A DNA stretch of 64,000 bases from Sphagnum magellanicum (lineage: Eukaryota; Streptophyta; Sphagnopsida; Sphagnales; Sphagnaceae). A program made the translations under genes and the position numbers. Below the pieces are notes generated by a model. The model had not been told where the DNA came from. It worked only from the letters and a program-made list of their open reading frames with translations, and did no database searches. The stretch spans positions 9,718,041 to 9,782,040 of the forward strand of contig CM038917.1 in assembly GCA_021904315.1 (NCBI GenBank), in the 5' to 3' direction. This document shows positions 27,784 through 64,000 of the stretch, one piece after another; the stretch's first letter is position 1, and every line of letters starts with the position of its first letter.

Positions 27784-29466
27784 TCAAAGTTCATATTCTG
27801 AACGACGAGATAGTGCGTCAGCTTTCCCTTGCTGGGTGCTGGGTTGATACTGAATCTCAAAGTTGAAATCAGCTAGGAAGATAGACCAGCGTGCTTGGCG
27901 ACAATTTAAGGTCCGAGTAGTTGTGAAATAAAGGAGATTCTTGTGATCTGTCAGAACTTGGACTCGATGTTGAGCTCCGGCAAGATACGGACTCCACTGC
28001 TCGAATGTCGTGATGATTGCCAGGAGTTCCTTATCGTAGACCTGGTAGTTGATTTCGGCATTGGTTAATTTCCGTGAATAGAAAGCAACTGGATGCAGCA
28101 ACCCATCTATTCCAAATTGAGATAGAATAGCTCCCAAGGCAAAATCTGAAGCGTCCGTTTCCACAATGAATGGCTTGGCAGGATCGGGATGTATCAGGAT
28201 GGGTGCAGAGGTGAATGCCATCTTGAGAGTATCAAAAGCAGCCTGGGCCGTTGGGTTCCACGATAAGGGTTTGTCTTTGCAAGTCAGGGTTATTAACGGT
28301 GTTGTGATCTTGGAGTAGCCTTTGATAAACCGACGATAGAAGTTGGCAAACCCCAGGAAGCGTTGAACGTCCTTGACCGAGGATGGAGTAGCCCAACACT
28401 GGATGGTCTTGACCTTTGACTTGTCCATGAAAATGCCATCTGGAGAGATCACGTAGCCGAGGAACGCCACTAAAGATTTGTCGAATTCACATTTTTCCAA
28501 CTTGGCGTATAAACCATGCTTTCGGAGAGTCGCAAGCACCAATCGTACATGTTTGTCGTGGATTTCCTGGTCCTTGGAAAAGATTAAAATGTCATCCAAA
28601 TAGACCACGACAAATTCATCCATGTAATCCCGGAAGATATCATTCATCAGATGCTGAAAGACTGCGGGTGCATTGGTGAGGCCGAAGGGCATGACCGTGT
28701 ATTCGAAGTGGCCGTAGCGTGTGTGGAAAGTTGTCTTCCATTCATCACCGGGACGAATCTTGAGTAAGTTGTAGGCTCCACGGAGGTCAAGCTTGGTGAA
28801 GATCTTCCCGGTACATAGTCGATCCAGGAGACCTGAAATCAAGGGCAAGGGATATCGATTATTTTTGGTTATCTTGTTGAGTCCACGATAATCCACACAG
28901 AGTCGAAGGGAGCCATCCTTCTTCTTGACAAACAAAATTGGGGCACCGGCTGGAGACTTGGAATGCTGAATGAACCCCTTGGCAAGATTTTCAGTAAGGT
29001 AATCACACAAGGCTTGGAGTTCTGGTTTCGATAGGCCATAGATAGGACCAAAGGGTGGTGAGTGTCCTTCTTCTAGATCAATTGGGCAGTCATATGGACT
29101 ATGGGCGGGGAGCTGATCAGCATTAATTTTTTCAAAAACATCAACAAAGTCCTTGTACTTCTTGGGAAGGTTGACATGTGTTGGTTCTGATGGGGGGTTT
29201 GTGTTGTTGGCTGGGTTGATATGGATGGCGAAGATTTGAAGATTCTTAGTAGCTCGATAGAAAGGGACAGTTCTATCAACGAAGATTTGGACAGGGTTGG
29301 TTTTCTGGGTGGGATTCTTGACAAGGTTCTTGACAGGACAAGGTTTAGTTTTGACCAACTGGGGGTTCTTGACTGCAGGACTTGACATAACAGACTTGAG
29401 AAAACTGGAATTGGTTCCGACCCTCTTTGGGTTCTTGACCACAGGGTTCTTGGCAGGACTGGACAA
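27784..29466 (-). CDS. Reverse transcriptase and RNase H of the chromovirus (uninterrupted 560-codon frame)
   Basis: The reverse transcriptase palm is complete: LRLCVDYRGLNKIT, KLDLRGAYN, MPFGLTNAP, and the catalytic VVYLDDILIFS. The thumb/connection follows (FLGFANFYRRFI). RNase H follows with PFIVETDASDFALGAILSQ, YDKELLAI, LTDHKNLLYF and ADALSRR. Length and motif order are normal for Ty3/gypsy. The leading ~100 codons are a low-complexity linker rich in KNP and VKNP repeats. The frame ends at a TGA (27784-27786) that separates it from integrase in the same frame, so it is part of a broken pol polyprotein rather than a free-standing gene. Confidence 0.95.
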   Translation of the reverse strand: MSSPAKNPVVKNPKRVGTNSSFLKSVMSSPAVKNPQLVKTKPCPVKNLVKNPTQKTNPVQIFVDRTVPFYRATKNLQIFAIHINPANNTNPPSEPTHVNLPKKYKDFVDVFEKINADQLPAHSPYDCPIDLEEGHSPPFGPIYGLSKPELQALCDYLTENLAKGFIQHSKSPAGAPILFVKKKDGSLRLCVDYRGLNKITKNNRYPLPLISGLLDRLCTGKIFTKLDLRGAYNLLKIRPGDEWKTTFHTRYGHFEYTVMPFGLTNAPAVFQHLMNDIFRDYMDEFVVVYLDDILIFSKDQEIHDKHVRLVLATLRKHGLYAKLEKCEFDKSLVAFLGYVISPDGIFMDKSKVKTIQCWATPSSVKDVQRFLGFANFYRRFIKGYSKITTPLITLTCKDKPLSWNPTAQAAFDTLKMAFTSAPILIHPDPAKPFIVETDASDFALGAILSQFGIDGLLHPVAFYSRKLTNAEINYQVYDKELLAIITTFEQWSPYLAGAQHRVQVLTDHKNLLYFTTTRTLNCRQARWSIFLADFNFEIQYQPSTQQGKADALSRRSEYEL

Positions 29467-29475
29467 AATGTTTTT

Positions 29476-56240: not shown

Positions 56241-56954
56241 AGCCATGTCACATTTCAATGACCCTTTAAAATTTTACAAGCAAACACTCATAATATCCAA
56301 CATTGGGTAGTTGAACAAGATCATACAAAATGTTTCACAAACCATAAACACATGGAATTTAGTGGATTCCAATCTTCAAACCAACTTAACTCTTGTATGT
56401 TTTTCTAATTTTAGTGTTTTAAATAACACTTTATAGATTGTCTAAACATAGATTGAATTTACTTGACCAACAAGAAGTACCTCTAACACTATTTAGAACT
56501 AGCCTTTCAAGAAATTGACGATGAACATGGATAATGTTCTTGCCAAATTGGCGTTTTATCATTGCACTTGTTTAGGGTTATCACCTATAGACATCGAACA
56601 TGCAGATTCTACATAAGCAACAAGTTTTGCATTTTTTGCAGCAACTTGATCACTTTTTGTTACTCGTAACTTTACCTAATGATGCATGTAATTATGTTGA
56701 TACATCCTCTTGTAAACTTTCTTTTTCTTGCAAGGATCTAAAATCTCCTCCTCACTTTCCAAAAATAAATCACCTCCACCTTCGTCTACCACAACTCCCA
56801 CACTATCATCCAAATTAGTGTCTTGTGTTCCAACAAGATTGACATCCCTATTGTCCACTTGAGGATTTTGGCATCAGTAGCCATCAAAACAATCTTCTTC
56901 AAGTTCAAGAGCTTGGCAAGGAGCTCATTTTATTTATTTATCAAATTCCCCATG

Positions 56955-58544
56955 TGTCATGCCCGTACATGGCCTCATACATGATGGCTAATTATGCCTT
57001 TTAAGGTTAATGTACGCTTTTAAGGTAAGTGTACGTTCTTAGGGTTTTAGCTTGTTGGTGGCTGTATAAAAGGCCAAGCCCTTCCCTTCTCTTTTTAGTT
57101 TTTCTATAATTCTTTTGTTAGGAAAATTTCCTCCATAATCAAATTGGAATTTTAATTGTTCACGGTGGTTATTGCATGGCCACCATCTACATACACTACA
57201 TGTTCATTCCTTCTTTGTAATTCAATTCTAGAAAAATTTTATTCTTTGTTGCTTAATGTTGAAAGCGGCAAATTTCTTGTGCATTTGAGTTTTTGAGTTT
57301 TTGGTGTTGGTGTTGTTGTTACTATTGTTCCTAGTGTTGCTATTGTTGGTGTTGCTGTTGTCAGAGGGAGCTTGCGTTGCTACATGAAGGAGCTTGTGTT
57401 GTTACATTTCTACTAATAGAGTCGGGATCTTGGAGCAAGTTTCAAAGTTTTTTTTTTCTCTTTCTCTTTCAAGCATAGAGACGCGCACTCTTGTGGCGGT
57501 TGAAGACTCTTGAAACTCCCAAGTAAATTTTTTTTTTAAAAACAAAAATTTCTGCCATTGCTACCGAACGCCATCGTTGCAAAGCGCCATTGTTGCCAAG
57601 CAGCGTTGCCGCAACTTACAACGACGCGAGTTGCAACGTTATCGCAAGCTCTTATAGCCGCAAATAACGATGTACATTGCAGCGCCGTTGCAAGTTGCAG
57701 TGTTGCAAGTTACAGTGCCACTACCACTTATAGCGACGCAAGCTATAACATTGCCATGAATTCTTGCAGTCGCATGAGCTGTAGCTTTTATAGTCGCACG
57801 AGCTTGCAACGTTTGCAACCATTAACCATTGCCACAGAGCTCCTCCATCCGTCCATGGACTTCTGTCCGTCCACAGACTTTCGTCCAATGTTCGTCAGAC
57901 TTCCATCGGACTTTTATCCAACTACCATCCTACATCCTACGTTTTATCAACCTGCCATCATGCGTCTTGCATTTTGTCATCATATGTCATGTGTTCTATC
58001 ATCCTGCATCATGCGTTCTACTATTTTACCGTCCTACCTTTTCGTCCAATGTCCATTTAATTTCCATCCAACCTTTGTTCGACCTTCATGTGACGTCCAT
58101 TTGACCTCCGTTTGACATTCGTCTGTCACTAATCATTCTTGGCGATGCATCGTATTCTTCAAATCGTACATTGTGTTAGAACTTAGTAGTTAATGTTTTA
58201 TATTGTTACAAAATTTTAGGGCATGGGACAACACCGCGTCCTCAGATGATGAGAGCACTACCGCTCAGCCAGAGGCCAAGTATCAACTATGAAGTAACAC
58301 ATAATCCTTTGAACTGATTTCTTTAAGTTCATAATCTTCACAATAGTACCATCAAGCATCTACAGCACCACCGCCATCTAGTACAACTCCTACCAAGAAT
58401 TTAGGTTCAGGTTACACTACATCAACGGTACATCATAGTCCATTTGGAAGGGTTCATCAGTGGGGTAAGCATGTTGCCGCACTTGTTTTCACACCGTCAC
58501 CGTACATTCCGTTGTAAGTTGTTACCTCTACACCCATATACACC
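56955..58544 (+). mobile_element. Probable 5' LTR and leader of the second Ty3/gypsy element
   Basis: TGTCATGCCC at 56955 is a typical LTR beginning, and a TATA box (TATAAA, 57065-57070) follows about 110 bp later. Gag coding begins at about 58545. The partner LTR lies beyond the window, so the LTR's right end is not defined and no primer binding site was found. 57295-57365 is a gttgttggtgtt microsatellite-like stretch. 57550-58140 is low-complexity, first rich in cgttgcaa/gcaacg strings, then in cgtcca/tccgtc strings; it stays open for 185 codons only because of this repetition. Confidence 0.55.
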
Positions 58545-59520
58545 ATGGAGGTCAATAATTCCTCTGGGAGAATTGAAAATTTCAGTGGAAAGCCAGGTGT
58601 TATTTTTTTGAAGGAGTTCAAGGCAATTTTCTCAACTATGGTTTGTGAATTGAAACTCAAGTATGGTGTTAATTACATCGAAGCATTCACATTCAAACAA
58701 TTGGCCCATTATGTGCACTATGAGGCATTAGTTGTCTACGAATAGCATTCTCCAAGGATTTTGGACGTCACCCAGATCCCCAATCCAACTTATGCCACAG
58801 CCATCGCCATCATTTCTCAAGCTGCACTGCAAACTGCCATTACACATCATGGGACTATGCCCAATAATCTAGATCCGATACCTACTTTAGTAAACCTTTC
58901 TCCTCAACAACTCATTGTTGCTACTACAAACATTCCTCCCACCATCGATGCACCAACTTTTGCTGATCCAATGGGGGAATTCTTTCGAGTTCTTAAACTA
59001 AAATTTCTGGTGAAGAATTTTGCAGCTCGCCACATTCTCTCGGCAAAAGGATGAAAACCTTCAAGATGCTTTACAGGAGGCTTCTCAAGCTTAAAGAGGA
59101 TATCCAGAACATCACAGACCTGGAAGTTGCCCATTAATATCTTCATTCATTAGAAGGTACTCCGACACTCCATGCGCATGTTTTGCAATGGGTTTTTGTT
59201 GAATTTGGAGACTTGCACATTTTGTTGGATGTGTACAACATTTTTGAAAAGTTGGAACTGGTTCATGCACACTATGAGGTTAGTACTATGAGGCCTCCCT
59301 TATGTTCAAGGCCTTAGCCTTCACCAGTTGCACTAACCAGATCATCACATTCTTCTTCAAGGGCTAAAACAGTGCATTTGGCTACACCCATCCTACCTTT
59401 TTGCAACTACTATGGCAATCTTGCCCACAAAATAAATGAATGCAACATTCCTTCTAAGGATCTTTTTTGTGATTATTGTGGGAAGGGACATCAGGAAGCT
59501 GTTTGTTTTGCCAAGTTCCC
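58545..59520 (+). pseudogene. Gag region with variant zinc knuckles
   Basis: The first part reads NNSSGRIENFSGKPGVIFLKEF..., typical of gypsy gag capsid openings of the type G.I.NFSG.PG. It is followed by FTFKQLAHYVHYEALVVYE and then a TAG (58743-58745). The frame continues from 58761. A frame change near 59040 and a TAA (CAT-TAA-TAT) near 59137 follow. Two knuckles lie in 59395-59520: a degenerate CNYYGNLAHKINEC and CDYCGKGHQEAVC. Expected role: particle assembly and RNA binding. Confidence 0.75.
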
Positions 59521-60064
59521 AAAAAGGAAACAACTTCGATTACCACGACAAAATCTGCCAGCATCTTCCGCTACCCCTTAACTAAAAGCCAAGGCACCTC
59601 GGCCTTCCACTCAAACTTTCCCCACCAAAGGTAATTCTAGTAAGAATGCTAAGAAGAAGGAGCACAATGCTAACAAGAGCAAGGTGCTTCAAGCCCATGC
59701 CATTCAAGTTCAAACTTTATAAAATGAACTCGAATCATTGAGGGCCCAACTTGCTAATCTAAAAGGCAAATCTTCCCAACCAACTAATCATGCCTAACCT
59801 ATACAAGGTTCAGGATCATGGGAGGGACCTCCTAGGTCATTCTATGGCTTCTCACATGATGAAATGGTTGAGGAGTATGTTCTTTTCAGTGCACACAATT
59901 CTAATCTCACACCAGAATTCACTACTTCTTTTTGCCCTTCCTATGTTACAGCACAAGAAACTAGTGTGGCACCCAGAGTTTCTGCCACTAGGTAGGTAAT
60001 TCAGACTGATGGACTCGCATCTGGTTTAAGTCCTATTACCAGGGCTAGAGGAGCCCGAGCAGTC

Positions 60065-61150
60065 ATGCCACAATCTTTTCGTCCTTTCAATACGGAAGAA
60101 GAACGCACCTTGTTGGTGAGGGGGGAACAGATTACTACACCACAAGCTGCTAGGGCATCAAATTCCTGTGTTTCAAGAGTACATGTACATCAGGAAAACA
60201 CACAATTTTCCACTGATCGACTTATGGAGTGCCAATTTCAAATGCGTGAAATGGCACAAAAGCTTATGAATACACCGTTATTTAGTTTTCAAGATTTGAA
60301 ATTAAACACCAGGGACATAATTATAGTACTAGAAGATACCCTAAACACTACATTAGGTCCTCTACCAATCCCTAATCCACATGCTACAAGGGTCCCATTC
60401 AACACCTTAAAGAGACATTTGATTGGCTCACATATAACAGATGGTGTTCGTAATCTGGTCATTAGTTCTAGCACGACTAAACTAGTGGGCTCTCTTAGCT
60501 CTAATTTTACATTCACATATCAGAAGGGAGTTAAAAACACCTCACTTGTGGATTTATTATTCAGCAAAGGCGTTGTGGATAGCCATTTTCTTCACAAAGT
60601 CTCTCATTCATTTCCAAAGGTGGTACTTAGTGAGAGAACTTCCATCACCACCAGAGTTACCATTGTCGACAATACTGAGTCAAGAATTCAAGTGAGAGGA
60701 CATACACCCAAAGTGGTACCTCTTGATACAAGTGCCTAACCAATGATTCTTGGAGTTCAATTCGCCAAAAAGATGGGCATGCTTGACTCTAAACTACGAA
60801 AATCTATGTGGCAAATTCACACTGTTAGTGGGAGTGTAGAGGAGGTACTTGGGGAAAGCTCGGATTTGATTACACTTAACTTCAATGAAGGTACAGATCA
60901 GGAGCCTTGTTTATAGGTCAGATGTTTAGTCACCAATGCCACCAGCTATGATGTGCTCATTGGGCAAAAGGCCTTGTTTCCACCAGGTTTCATAATTAAC
61001 AATTGGTTCAAGCATGCAAACTATCAAGTGGATTGGGAGACTAATGGGCACCACCTAGGATACATGCCCCTTGATTTACATGGAAACCGTAATCCTATGG
61101 CTCACCATTGTATGTTCAAGGAAGCACACACTATTTCTTACATCCAATAA
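60065..61150 (+). pseudogene. Gag-pol linker and aspartic protease region
   Basis: The open frame 60065-60739 (224 codons) ends VVPLDTSA then TAA, followed in frame by PMILGVQFAKKMGM. The D-T-S/G and ILG spacing suggests a retroviral-type aspartic protease with D-T-S-A in place of D-T-G-A. The frame runs on through a TAG (60914-60916) and YDVLIGQKALFPPGF to a TAA at 61148-61150. The long stretch before the protease (TEEERTLLVRG..., QMREMAQKLM) is unfamiliar. The protease call rests on position and short motifs. Confidence 0.6.
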
Positions 61151-61341: not shown

Positions 61342-62373
61342 CCAGTATTTCGTGAACTAATCACCTGGACACCACCTAAGGAGGGGATTACATTACTAGA
61401 GTTTTTTGGTGGTATTAGTACAGGTCTCGAAGCCTTACTATAATCAAGGATGGTGGTTCAGAGGTATTTCTATGTAAACATTGATCCTATTGCAAGGCAA
61501 GTGGTGGCATCAAGAATGATGGAACTCATAGGTAGATTTCCACAACAGTTTTCAACCACTGCATGGAAGGCCAGTTTCAGTTTCTTGCCTTTTAACATAC
61601 AACTAATTCAAAAAAAACATATGGAATTACTTGGCCCCGTGGACCTCATCATTTCAAGTTGGCAATGTTAAGGATTTTGAGCGGTTGGATTTGGAAAAGC
61701 TTGAATGACATAAGATCCAGTCTCTTCACAGACATGGTATGATTAATCACCTTGGCTCAATCCATTTCTCCTACGCTTGGTTATGTAATTGAGAACACCC
61801 TTTCTTAACTTAACCAAAGGGAAAAAGTCGAAGAACACTACATGCTAATCAAGCATTACCTTGGAGAGCCCCTCCTACTCGATGTGACACAATGCAAAAC
61901 CTATGCGCACCAGCTGCGCAACTAGTGGACCAACCTGGTACCACTCTCAGTTCTGCAACTAGCTTTGAAATACACCATCAAAGACCCCAACCTGCAGGTT
62001 TCTCACATATTGGATGATCAAAGCTCTTGCCAACCATGTACAAGGCAAGATAAACCTCCTTGGTTTCTTACGAACACAATAGGAAAACCAAAAGGTGCTT
62101 GGCCCACCTTTGTCTCCTTCCAAGGAGCACACGCCTTTCAAGGAGATGGACTAGGCCTGGTGTATCATCATGCTTCAGCCACTTGGGATGAACCAAGCCC
62201 AGAAGAAAAAAAAAAGGGCTATGGGGTTCCAAGCTGGCACTACTAGTCACACTAAGGTGACTAGATTGGAATGTAACGCTCTATTGGGGATAGGCATGGA
62301 CCTGAACTCCCTTACATGGTTGTTGGTAACTTGTGTACTCTTTCAAATGTACACAACACCAACACTGATTTAA
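61342..62373 (+). pseudogene. C5 cytosine-DNA methyltransferase domain captured by the retroelement
   Basis: The domain spans about 340 codons in three frame pieces. Motif I, the SAM-binding loop, is LLEFFGGISTGLEALL (61393-61440). A motif II-like acidic strand follows, YFYVNIDPIARQV. The motif IV region is GPVDLIISSWQC, with the probable catalytic Cys at 61666-61668; the usual Pro before it is Gln. Motif VI is GYVIENT (61779-61799), equivalent to the ENV motif. Motif IX/X is AMGFQAGTT followed by LLGIGMDLNSLTWLL (about 62215-62328). Motif order and spacing fit DNMT-type enzymes, which transfer a methyl group from SAM to C5 of cytosine. Stops (61441, 61669, 61740, 61806, 61923), a missing base near 61699 and a shift in the A10 run (62206-62215) show that this copy is dead. 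From memory, cytosine methyltransferases inside retrotransposons have been reported in charophyte algae and dinoflagellates; this one sits between protease and reverse transcriptase. Confidence 0.85.
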
Positions 62374-62568: not shown

Positions 62569-63540
62569 TTGGATAGTGGAGAACCCAATACACCAAGTTC
62601 TTCAAACACACTTTCAAATTCCATTCCATGTGTTTCCAACTACCTTTTCGTTATGGGGAACCAACTCACCAAGAAAGAAAGAGACCAGGTCATAGACTTG
62701 TTAATTAAGTATGAGAATGTGTTCGCATTCTCAATGAAAGACTTGGGTAGGTGTAAGACCATGCAGTTCTCTATAGACCTTACAGATGAAACACCCGTTT
62801 ATCGAAGGAGGCATAGGTTGAATAAGCATGAGTGGGAACTAGTAGATGAAAGATGCAAAGAGCTCCATGAGGCCGGTCTCATTCAGCCATCAAATTCTAA
62901 TTTCGTAACTACTACAATAATGCCAACAAAAAAAAATTTAGCTAGATTATGGACTAAAAAAAGGATGTGCGGGGATTATAAGCCTTTGAGCCTAGTTACA
63001 CCTCAGGACAAGTACCCCATGCCCATCCTTGAAGAACTGTTTAATAGCATCGGAGATTCAAACATCTTCACAATTATGGATTTAAGGCAAGGCTTCAACC
63101 AGATTATGCTCACTACGATGGATCGCAAGAAAATAACATTCCATGGAAGCAATGAGTTGTGGGAATGGCTTGTGATGCCTTTTGGATTGAAGAATGCACT
63201 TGTCTTCTTTCAACGAATCATGGACCAGGTTCTCGAAAGGGTAGATTTCTTAAAGTGCTACATAGATGACGTCCTAATGCATAACAAAGGACTCGTGCAA
63301 CATTTGGCTCATCTTGAGGAGTTATTCAAGAGGCTCCACAAAGTCAATATGAAAATCCATCCTAAAAAGTGTGAGTTTGTTGTCACATCAATAATCTACT
63401 TTGGACACAGAATTTTGCCAAATGGTATTATGGTTCATTGGGCCAAAGTAATAGCCATTTTGGAAATGCCCAATCCTATTGATGTTCACACATTGAAGAA
63501 CTTCATTGAATTATGTAATTACTATAGAATTTATGTCTAA
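62569..63540 (+). CDS. Reverse transcriptase of the methyltransferase-bearing element
   Basis: A 323-codon uninterrupted frame. Typical Ty3/gypsy palm motifs: MQFSIDLTDETPVYRRRHRL, CGDYKPLSLVTPQDKYPMP, FTIMDLRQGFNQIML, WLVMPFGLKNA and the catalytic CYIDDVLMHN (Y-I-D-D), then HPKKCEF and FGHRILPNGI. Some positions are degraded, for example MCGDYKPLS where C-V-D-Y-R/K-x-L-N is usual. The frame ends at a TAA (63538-63540) inside a motif that continues in the same frame as RNase H, so the stop is premature. Confidence 0.93.
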   Translation: MDSGEPNTPSSSNTLSNSIPCVSNYLFVMGNQLTKKERDQVIDLLIKYENVFAFSMKDLGRCKTMQFSIDLTDETPVYRRRHRLNKHEWELVDERCKELHEAGLIQPSNSNFVTTTIMPTKKNLARLWTKKRMCGDYKPLSLVTPQDKYPMPILEELFNSIGDSNIFTIMDLRQGFNQIMLTTMDRKKITFHGSNELWEWLVMPFGLKNALVFFQRIMDQVLERVDFLKCYIDDVLMHNKGLVQHLAHLEELFKRLHKVNMKIHPKKCEFVVTSIIYFGHRILPNGIMVHWAKVIAILEMPNPIDVHTLKNFIELCNYYRIYV

Positions 63541-64000
63541 GATTTCAGTACTATTGCTCATCCTCTTTATGCATTATTAAAGAAAGATGTTGCTTGGACA
63601 TGGAGTGATGAAACTCAGGAGGCTTTCAACACACTCAAGGAAAAGCTTTCAGAGTTCCCCTTTCTAAGAAGACTTGATTTCAACAAGGTCTTCATTCTAC
63701 ACACTGACTAGAATGTTCTTAGTATTGGAACTATTCTTGGCCAACTTGATGAGGAAGGCAAGGAATATGTTATTGCCTATGCATCCTAAAACAACAAGGT
63801 TGAGAGTAACTACTTTTCATATGAGCCTTACTATTGTATGGGCCGTCATACATTTCAAGCCTTATCTTTATGGCACCAATTTCACTTTGTATGTTGACCA
63901 CCAGCCTATCAAGTGGTTGATGACCAACGATAAGCTTACTGGTAAGTTAGCTCATTGGGCACTTATATTTAAAGAGTATGAGTTCAAGGTTATTCACCGA
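63541..64000 (+). pseudogene. RNase H domain, partial at the window edge
   Basis: In frame after the reverse transcriptase stop come DFSTIAHPLYALLKKD and AWTWSDETQEAFNTLKEKL (the connection), then the first RNase H strand FILHTD followed by a TAG (63709-63711), GTILGQLDEEGKEYVIAYAS and a TAA (63787-63789). After a frame change, YVDHQPIKWLMT-like and YEFKVIH sequences run to the window end. Confidence 0.85.

What the first reader, a model, noticed from the sequence alone, without database searches (positions are those of the whole stretch)
61342..62373. A Ty3/gypsy retrotransposon in a land plant that carries its own cytosine-5 DNA methyltransferase
Seen: C5-methyltransferase motifs I, IV, VI and IX/X in order, between a protease-like region and a reverse transcriptase in one ancestral frame. 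Known: host methylation normally silences such elements, and retrotransposon-borne DNMTs are, from memory, reported only in charophyte algae and dinoflagellates. Inference: this family took up a DNMT gene that may methylate the element's own cDNA or copies, as camouflage or self-restraint. If this is a land plant, it widens the known range or shows vertical inheritance from the algal ancestor.
Basis: partly seen in the sequence, partly recalled or inferred. Interest (0 to 1): 0.95.

Follow-up and report, generated by a model that had tools for sequence, protein, structure and literature searches.

The report
Moss retrotransposons carrying a DNA methyltransferase
A peat moss genome carries a large family of copy-and-paste genetic parasites that have built an enzyme for adding methyl marks to DNA, the kind of mark plants use to silence such parasites, into their own replication machinery.

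Summary
Confirmed, and larger than described. The window copy is a dead Ty3/gypsy-type element (window 56955 to window-equivalent 65830) with a broken C5-methyltransferase domain between protease and reverse transcriptase. The genome is the 439-Mb peat moss Sphagnum magellanicum/divinum assembly. It holds at least 104 DNMT places of this subfamily, 8 full length without a stop. Open copies read Gag-protease-DNMT-RT-RNase H-integrase-PHD finger. Relatives' DNMT domains match DNMT3A/3B best by sequence and fold and keep the unrearranged motif order: DNMT3-like, not DRM. Their dN/dS (median 0.24) resembles that of RT (0.30). Relatives occur in a second Sphagnum subfamily, Marchantia, Calypogeia, Closterium and metagenomes. 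7 of 16 fetched copies end in DIRS-like split repeats (A-body-B-A-B), the arrangement described for Klebsormidium's KnitGypsy-Dnmt3, yet the elements have a DDE-type integrase and 4-bp target duplications (8 of 9 testable copies). This is a land-plant branch of a known kind of element, with a PHD reader. One published opinion says land plants lack transposon-encoded DNA methylases. Self-methylation of cDNA is plausible but untested; subfamily A has Glu for Pro in the catalytic loop. Vertical descent from algae is possible, not shown.

The parts
56951..56954 (+). 4-bp target-site duplication CATG, left side (right side at window-equivalent 65831-65834, in L040)
   Evidence: same 4-bp rule in 8 of 9 testable copies
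56955..57228 (+). 5' terminal repeat A (starts TGTCATG; diverged)
   Evidence: blastn to repeat A of copy L024 at 56998-57041 and 57039-57228; start at 56955
58521..59580 (+). gag remains with two zinc-knuckle-like cysteine clusters at 59402-59509
   Evidence: tblastn against open copy L025; open pieces; zf-CCHC by Pfam in copy L034
60640..60995 (+). aspartic protease remains (Asp-Thr-Ser-Ala at 60725-60736; Asp-(Ser/Thr)-Gly-Ala in open copies)
   Evidence: frames, range by tblastn; PF13975 2.5e-7 in open copy L025; no Pfam protease match in the window's own pieces
61384..62327 (+). broken DNMT3-like cytosine-5 methyltransferase domain, motifs I, IV, VI, VIII, IX/X in order
   Evidence: PDB by sequence and fold of relatives
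62569..63540 (+). Ty3/gypsy-type reverse transcriptase (open piece)
   Evidence: PF00078 3.9e-25
63668..64000 (+). RNase H; the element runs on past the window with integrase, PHD and repeat B remains (L040, to window-equivalent 65830)
   Evidence: PF17917 2.9e-14; continuation in L040

Best explanation
WHAT (about 0.97): a dead copy of a multi-copy Ty3/gypsy-type retrotransposon family of peat moss whose polyprotein is Gag-protease-DNMT3-like methyltransferase-RT-RNase H-integrase-PHD finger. HOW (about 0.45, inferred): the polyprotein is made from one long frame and cut by its protease, so the DNMT travels with RT in the particle. It puts 5-methylcytosine on the new cDNA (or RNA-DNA hybrid) before integration, so that the incoming copy is not handled as naked foreign DNA, or so that its chromatin state is set at once. 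The PHD finger at the integrase tail steers integration to particular histone H3 tails. The element ends TGTCATG...CACGACA are joined by the integrase with a 4-bp target duplication. The internal B1-GC-A2 junction carries both end sequences two bases apart and may serve as the template by which the ends are completed or circularised. Shown: domains, order, copies, ends, duplications, constraint on the domain. Inferred: packaging, cDNA methylation, histone steering, use of the junction.
Against: No methylation, expression or activity data. In yeast the Klebsormidium gypsy DNMT showed no activity, which its authors call inconclusive. Subfamily A, the window's own, has Glu for the Pro before the catalytic Cys (GWECQG) in all 5 of its rows in the tree, one of them Calypogeia, and Closterium has it too (Glu in 27 of 129 domains). 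CpG depletion does not single these copies out. dN/dS was measured only on copies with an intact domain. One of 9 testable copies (L028) has no matching 4-bp flanks.
Confidence: 0.6

Rival explanations
1. Same element, but the domain is no longer a DNA methyltransferase: it is kept as a structural, RNA-binding or RNA-methylating part of Pol.
For: Pro-to-Glu before the catalytic Cys in subfamily A and in Closterium; Thr for Val in motif VI of subfamily A (ENT); Klebsormidium domain inactive in yeast (inconclusive per authors).
Against: Subfamily B, the Marchantia rows and 89 of 129 domains keep Pro-Cys in motif IV; fold and sequence closest to DNMT3A/3B.
Confidence: 0.25
2. Self-restraint: the DNMT methylates integrated copies and dampens the family, which spares the host and so the element.
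For: Most of the 104 places carry stops in the domain; the idea is offered in PMC5890265.
Against: The 104 places lie on 20 of 31 contigs, and paired terminal repeats of 7 copies are 96-100% identical, which speaks of recent spread; nothing here ties methylation to reduced spread.
Confidence: 0.2
3. Chance insertion of a DNMT gene beside an unrelated RT.
For: None found.
Against: Same order in other copies, two Sphagnum subfamilies, Marchantia, Closterium and a metagenome contig, and PR-DNMT in Calypogeia; DNMT and RT trees group the same rows where both are sampled.
Confidence: 0.01
4. The land-plant elements came by horizontal transfer from algae living with mosses and liverworts, not by vertical descent.
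For: Subfamily A of Sphagnum is nearest to Calypogeia, and Sphagnum B2 is nearest to Marchantia rather than to Sphagnum B; a relative lies in a metagenome contig filed under a cyanobacterium (L098).
Against: The same pattern follows from old duplications before the moss-liverwort split; mosses and liverworts are in both groups.
Confidence: 0.35

Closest known systems
KnitGypsy-Dnmt3 of Klebsormidium nitens (de Mendoza et al. 2018, PMC5890265; abstract, passages, sections 9 and 11 seen)
   Same: Gypsy-type element with an unrearranged DNMT3-type domain in the Pol ORF; DIRS-like repeat arrangement with gypsy domains (legend of Fig. 4); purifying selection on the DNMT.
   Different: Host is a moss (land plant); PHD finger at the integrase tail (no PHD is mentioned in the parts of the paper that I saw); subfamily A has GWECQG. 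Its sequence was not in hand, so no direct comparison was made.
SymbioDIRS-Dnmt3 and SymbioLINE-Dnmt (Symbiodinium, same paper)
   Same: Retrotransposons with a built-in DNMT; DIRS-type repeats in the former.
   Different: Tyrosine recombinase or LINE machinery; here rve integrase and 4-bp duplications.
Chromoviruses (Ty3/gypsy with chromodomain at the integrase tail)
   Same: Chromatin reader fused to the integrase tail.
   Different: Reader is a PHD finger, not a chromodomain; extra DNMT.
Plant DNMT3 and DRM
   Same: DNMT3-type catalytic fold, unrearranged motif order as in DNMT3.
   Different: Inside Pol; no DRM rearrangement. No plant DNMT3 gene was compared directly.

Membership tests
Ty3/gypsy (by pol) | RT, RNase H, rve integrase in the order RT-RH-INT | tested here: met
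   Pfam on slices of L025 and L098; in L034 RNase H and rve (its RT slice was not scanned by Pfam)
Ty3/gypsy (by pol) | TG...CA ends with short target-site duplication | tested here: met
   TGTCATG...CACGACA, 4 bp duplicated in 8 of 9 copies with both ends held; L028 fails
standard LTR retrotransposon | a full LTR at each end | tested here: not met
   of 16 fetched copies 7 end B-A-B, 7 in a single B, 1 is cut by the stretch, 1 has an inverted A; repeats are split, A at the left end and B at the right. It is therefore filed as Ty3/gypsy by its pol genes only.
KnitGypsy-Dnmt3-like elements | unrearranged DNMT3-type domain in the Pol ORF of a gypsy-type element | tested here: met
KnitGypsy-Dnmt3-like elements | A-coding-B-A-B repeats | tested here: met
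   7 of 16 copies, with 251 and 109 further bases between A2 and B2 in L034 and L036; 7 others end in one B, as B1 x B2 recombination or unit-length integration would give
KnitGypsy-Dnmt3-like elements | DNMT Ka/Ks below 0.2, as reported there | tested here: inconclusive
   median 0.24, range 0.05-0.42 among young copies
KnitGypsy-Dnmt3-like elements | common descent of its DNMT and RT with the Klebsormidium sequences | not tested
   no row named Klebsormidium was listed (lists capped at 120 rows in the first two); Closterium P0230 was
DIRS | tyrosine recombinase | tested here: not met
   no such Pfam match in the slices scanned of L025, L034, L098; rve instead
chromovirus | chromodomain at integrase C terminus | tested here: not met
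   PHD finger there instead; no chromodomain match at E<=0.01 in the slices scanned
DNMT3 (versus DRM) | motifs I to X in unrearranged order, closest to DNMT3 | tested here: met
   Sphagnum DRM-like genes are rearranged
active cytosine-5 methyltransferase | Pro-Cys of motif IV, Glu-Asn of motif VI | tested here: inconclusive
   subfamily B met; subfamily A has Glu-Cys in motif IV
active cytosine-5 methyltransferase | 5mC transfer to DNA | not testable with these tools
   needs an assay

The most novel reading that the evidence does not exclude
One old clade of streptophyte Ty3/gypsy-type elements pairs a DNMT3 writer with a PHD reader and split terminal repeats, and has passed down from charophyte algae into bryophytes, so that a methyl-writing parasite has lived inside the methylation-guarded land-plant lineage since its start; it was then lost on the way to (or in) vascular plants. 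The conserved CACGACA-GC-TGTCA junction is the sign of a replication route between LTR elements and DIRS.
Probability: 0.4. Interest if true: 0.85.

Novelty: new variant of a known kind. Interest (0 to 1): 0.72.

Why it matters
Plants silence transposons by cytosine methylation. Elements that bring their own methyl writer, and a histone reader, suggest that the mark can serve the parasite. Bryophytes such as Marchantia have genetics and methylomes (recalled), so the question why a retrotransposon would carry a DNMT becomes testable there. [quoted passage not shown] section 1 parts 1-2 of 4 read): bryophytes have them. And it warns that some bryophyte proteins named DNA (cytosine-5-)-methyltransferase in databases are retrotransposon pieces (P0176 with protease, P0197 with gag cysteines).

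Tried and rejected
PF00145 on the window copy itself: not significant. PDB by single pieces of the window copy: nothing. Chance insertion: rejected by recurrence. DRM origin: rejected by motif order and PDB scores (DNMT3A 1e-8; 4onj 0.03; DRM2 0.8). CpG depletion as a sign of self-methylation: rejected, the rest of the window is as depleted. Viral contigs: 53 loci, best E 2e-14, best identity 53% over a short stretch; not looked at further. Genome contigs: 7 loci, one close relative (L098), six weak matches in actinobacterial records, not looked at further. A genome-wide count of subfamily B, of the B-A junction, and a search for a host DNMT3 gene were wanted but did not complete. Dating in years was left out for want of a moss rate. 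Not-in-print statements rest on ten searches of an open-licence library only; [quoted passage not shown]

Full report
Observation. The copy is broken, and PF00145 does not reach significance on it: no match in the five open DNMT pieces and E 0.059 for one read-through with X at stops. The read-through finds 230 proteins with E<=0.01 among 957 candidates; the 120 listed are 59-88% identical, and the named ones are from Sphagnum and Calypogeia. So the domain is real.

Organism. The window is G000:C11:9718041-9782040 of a 438,994,042-base assembly. The Sphagnum genome paper (PMC9946827, passages) gives 439 Mb for S. divinum of the S. magellanicum complex and has no occurrence of methyltransferase, retrotransposon, Gypsy or DNMT in its main text. 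This is a land plant.

Family in the genome. PF00145 alone gives 124 matches, host genes included. The subfamily A domain (400 aa of copy L025) gives 104 places on 20 of 31 contigs (105 rows, one place split in two); only 104 of 1209 candidates were scored, so this is a lower bound. Eight match residues 1-400 with no stop. The window copy itself is not among the rows listed. Eight of the fetched copies have frames above 1200 aa; in L025 one frame of 2379 aa runs from the gag cysteines to the PHD finger.

Architecture. Slices of L025: gag-asp_proteas 2.5e-7, DNA_methylase 1.5e-9, RVT_1 9.8e-30, RNase H 4.9e-39, H2C2 6.5e-16, rve 5.6e-12, PHD 9e-12; its gag slice has no gag match. Slices of L034 (subfamily B): zf-CCHC 1.2e-5, DNA_methylase 1.3e-13, RNase H 5.8e-35, rve 1.8e-12, PHD 1.2e-8. 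The PHD slice of L025 matches PHD fingers of KMT2D (7e-17), KDM5, BAZ2B and CHD4 in the PDB. Over the database proteins PR-DNMT and DNMT-RT orders prevail, but in a second group the DNMT lies between RNase H and integrase (P0229 in full; RT-DNMT or DNMT-integrase in others).

Catalytic residues. In 129 domains covering over 72% of the profile (not independent; many are copies from one genus) the residue before the motif IV Cys is Pro in 89, Glu in 27, Ser in 1, Lys in 1, and not found by the pattern in 11; motif VI begins Glu-Asn in 114. Glu is in all 5 subfamily A rows of the tree and in Closterium, P0164, P0189, P0229 and P0236. Whether Glu permits catalysis is unknown; this is the strongest point against an active enzyme in the window's own subfamily.

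Selection. Nei-Gojobori dN/dS: DNMT median 0.241 (9 distinct copies, 36 pairs, 30 with dS>0.03, range 0.05-0.42); RT 0.300 (10 copies, 45 pairs, 40 with dS>0.03, range 0.13-0.54). first counted one genomic copy twice (L014 = L030), which one search corrects. The copies are those among 29 loci (some places fetched twice) with an intact domain, which removes nonsense but not missense changes.

Ends. Copies show repeat A at the left end and repeat B at the right. In 7 of 16 fetched copies the right end is B1-A2-B2 (L022, L024, L026, L029, L033, L034, L036; in L034 and L036 further bases lie between A2 and B2); 7 have one B (L023, L025, L027, L028, L030, L031, L035); L021 is cut by the stretch; L032 has an inverted A after B. 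A1 and A2 are 99.0% identical in L024 and 98.6% in L034; B1-B2 identities are 96-100%. Element ends are TGTCATG and CACGACA. 4 bp are duplicated in L022, L024, L029, L033, L034 (A-body-B-A-B) and in L030, L035 and the window copy (A-body-B), not in L028. The end rule was set on L024 and L034; the expected 4-mers for L022, L029 and L033 were written into the script from the 3' side before their 5' flanks were read; L026 could not be tested. At the B1-A2 junction both subfamilies have CACGACA-GC-TGTCATG. L098, a 9285-base contig filed under a cyanobacterial metagenome genome, encodes gag/PR-DNMT in one frame and, after a stop, RT-RH-INT-PHD; its zinc knuckle (0.0057) and protease (2e-4) are below Pfam's cut-offs, the other domains above. 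Its ends overlap by 127 bases, as a circle or a collapsed repeat would give, and it carries ACACGACAGCTGTCAC in its 2-kb non-coding stretch. De Mendoza et al. state in a figure legend that KnitGypsy-Dnmt3 has DIRS-like repeats with gypsy domains, the same oddity.

Mechanism. Ordinary LTR replication would rebuild full LTRs; split repeats do not. The junction holds both ends with two bases between them, like the two-base tails that integrases trim (recalled, not from a call). A unit-length form and a form with an extra A-B both carry target duplications, so both are integrase products, or the former arises from the latter by B1 x B2 recombination. The DNMT sits in Pol, so methylation of the cDNA is the simplest use, as de Mendoza et al. 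argued for DIRS. None of this was tested here.

Literature. PMC5890265 (abstract, passages, sections 9 and 11) reports charophyte and dinoflagellate elements. [quoted passage not shown] PMC12344493 (passages) mentions streptophytes in general. PMC6317226, PMC8775202 and PMC9289625 (term searches in the main text) gave no DNMT-bearing element. I found no report of bryophyte DNMT retrotransposons or of the PHD finger in the searches listed under Tried and rejected; most subscription papers and all preprints are outside that library.

Verdict. Real, multi-copy, evolving under constraint, in a land plant: a new variant of a known kind. Interest 0.72.

Noticed in passing
window 27787-29475 (minus strand): A second Ty3/gypsy-type RT in a 563-aa open frame; used as outgroup in the RT tree, at most 38% identical to the DNMT elements.
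   Followed up: partly
L098: A complete-looking retroelement contig of this family is filed under a Synechococcales metagenome genome (AVDCRST_MAG81), probably eukaryotic contamination, with a 127-base terminal overlap; nine database proteins are 86-93% identical in the DNMT.
   Followed up: yes
P0229, P0238, P0239, P0240: A group of metagenome elements carries the DNMT between RNase H and integrase instead of between protease and RT: moved or taken up at another site.
   Followed up: partly
P0154, P0176 (S. troendelagicum), P0197 (Marchantia): Database entries named DNA (cytosine-5-)-methyltransferase belong to this family; P0176 has a protease and P0197 gag cysteines beside the DNMT, so they could distort counts of host DNMT genes.
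   Followed up: no
L034-L036 against L021-L030: CHG observed/expected is 0.75-0.80 in six subfamily A copies and 1.21-1.23 in three subfamily B copies, 1.0 in the rest of the window; CpG is low in all. Unexplained.
   Followed up: no
L032 8475-8927: Repeat B followed by repeat A in inverted orientation.
   Followed up: no
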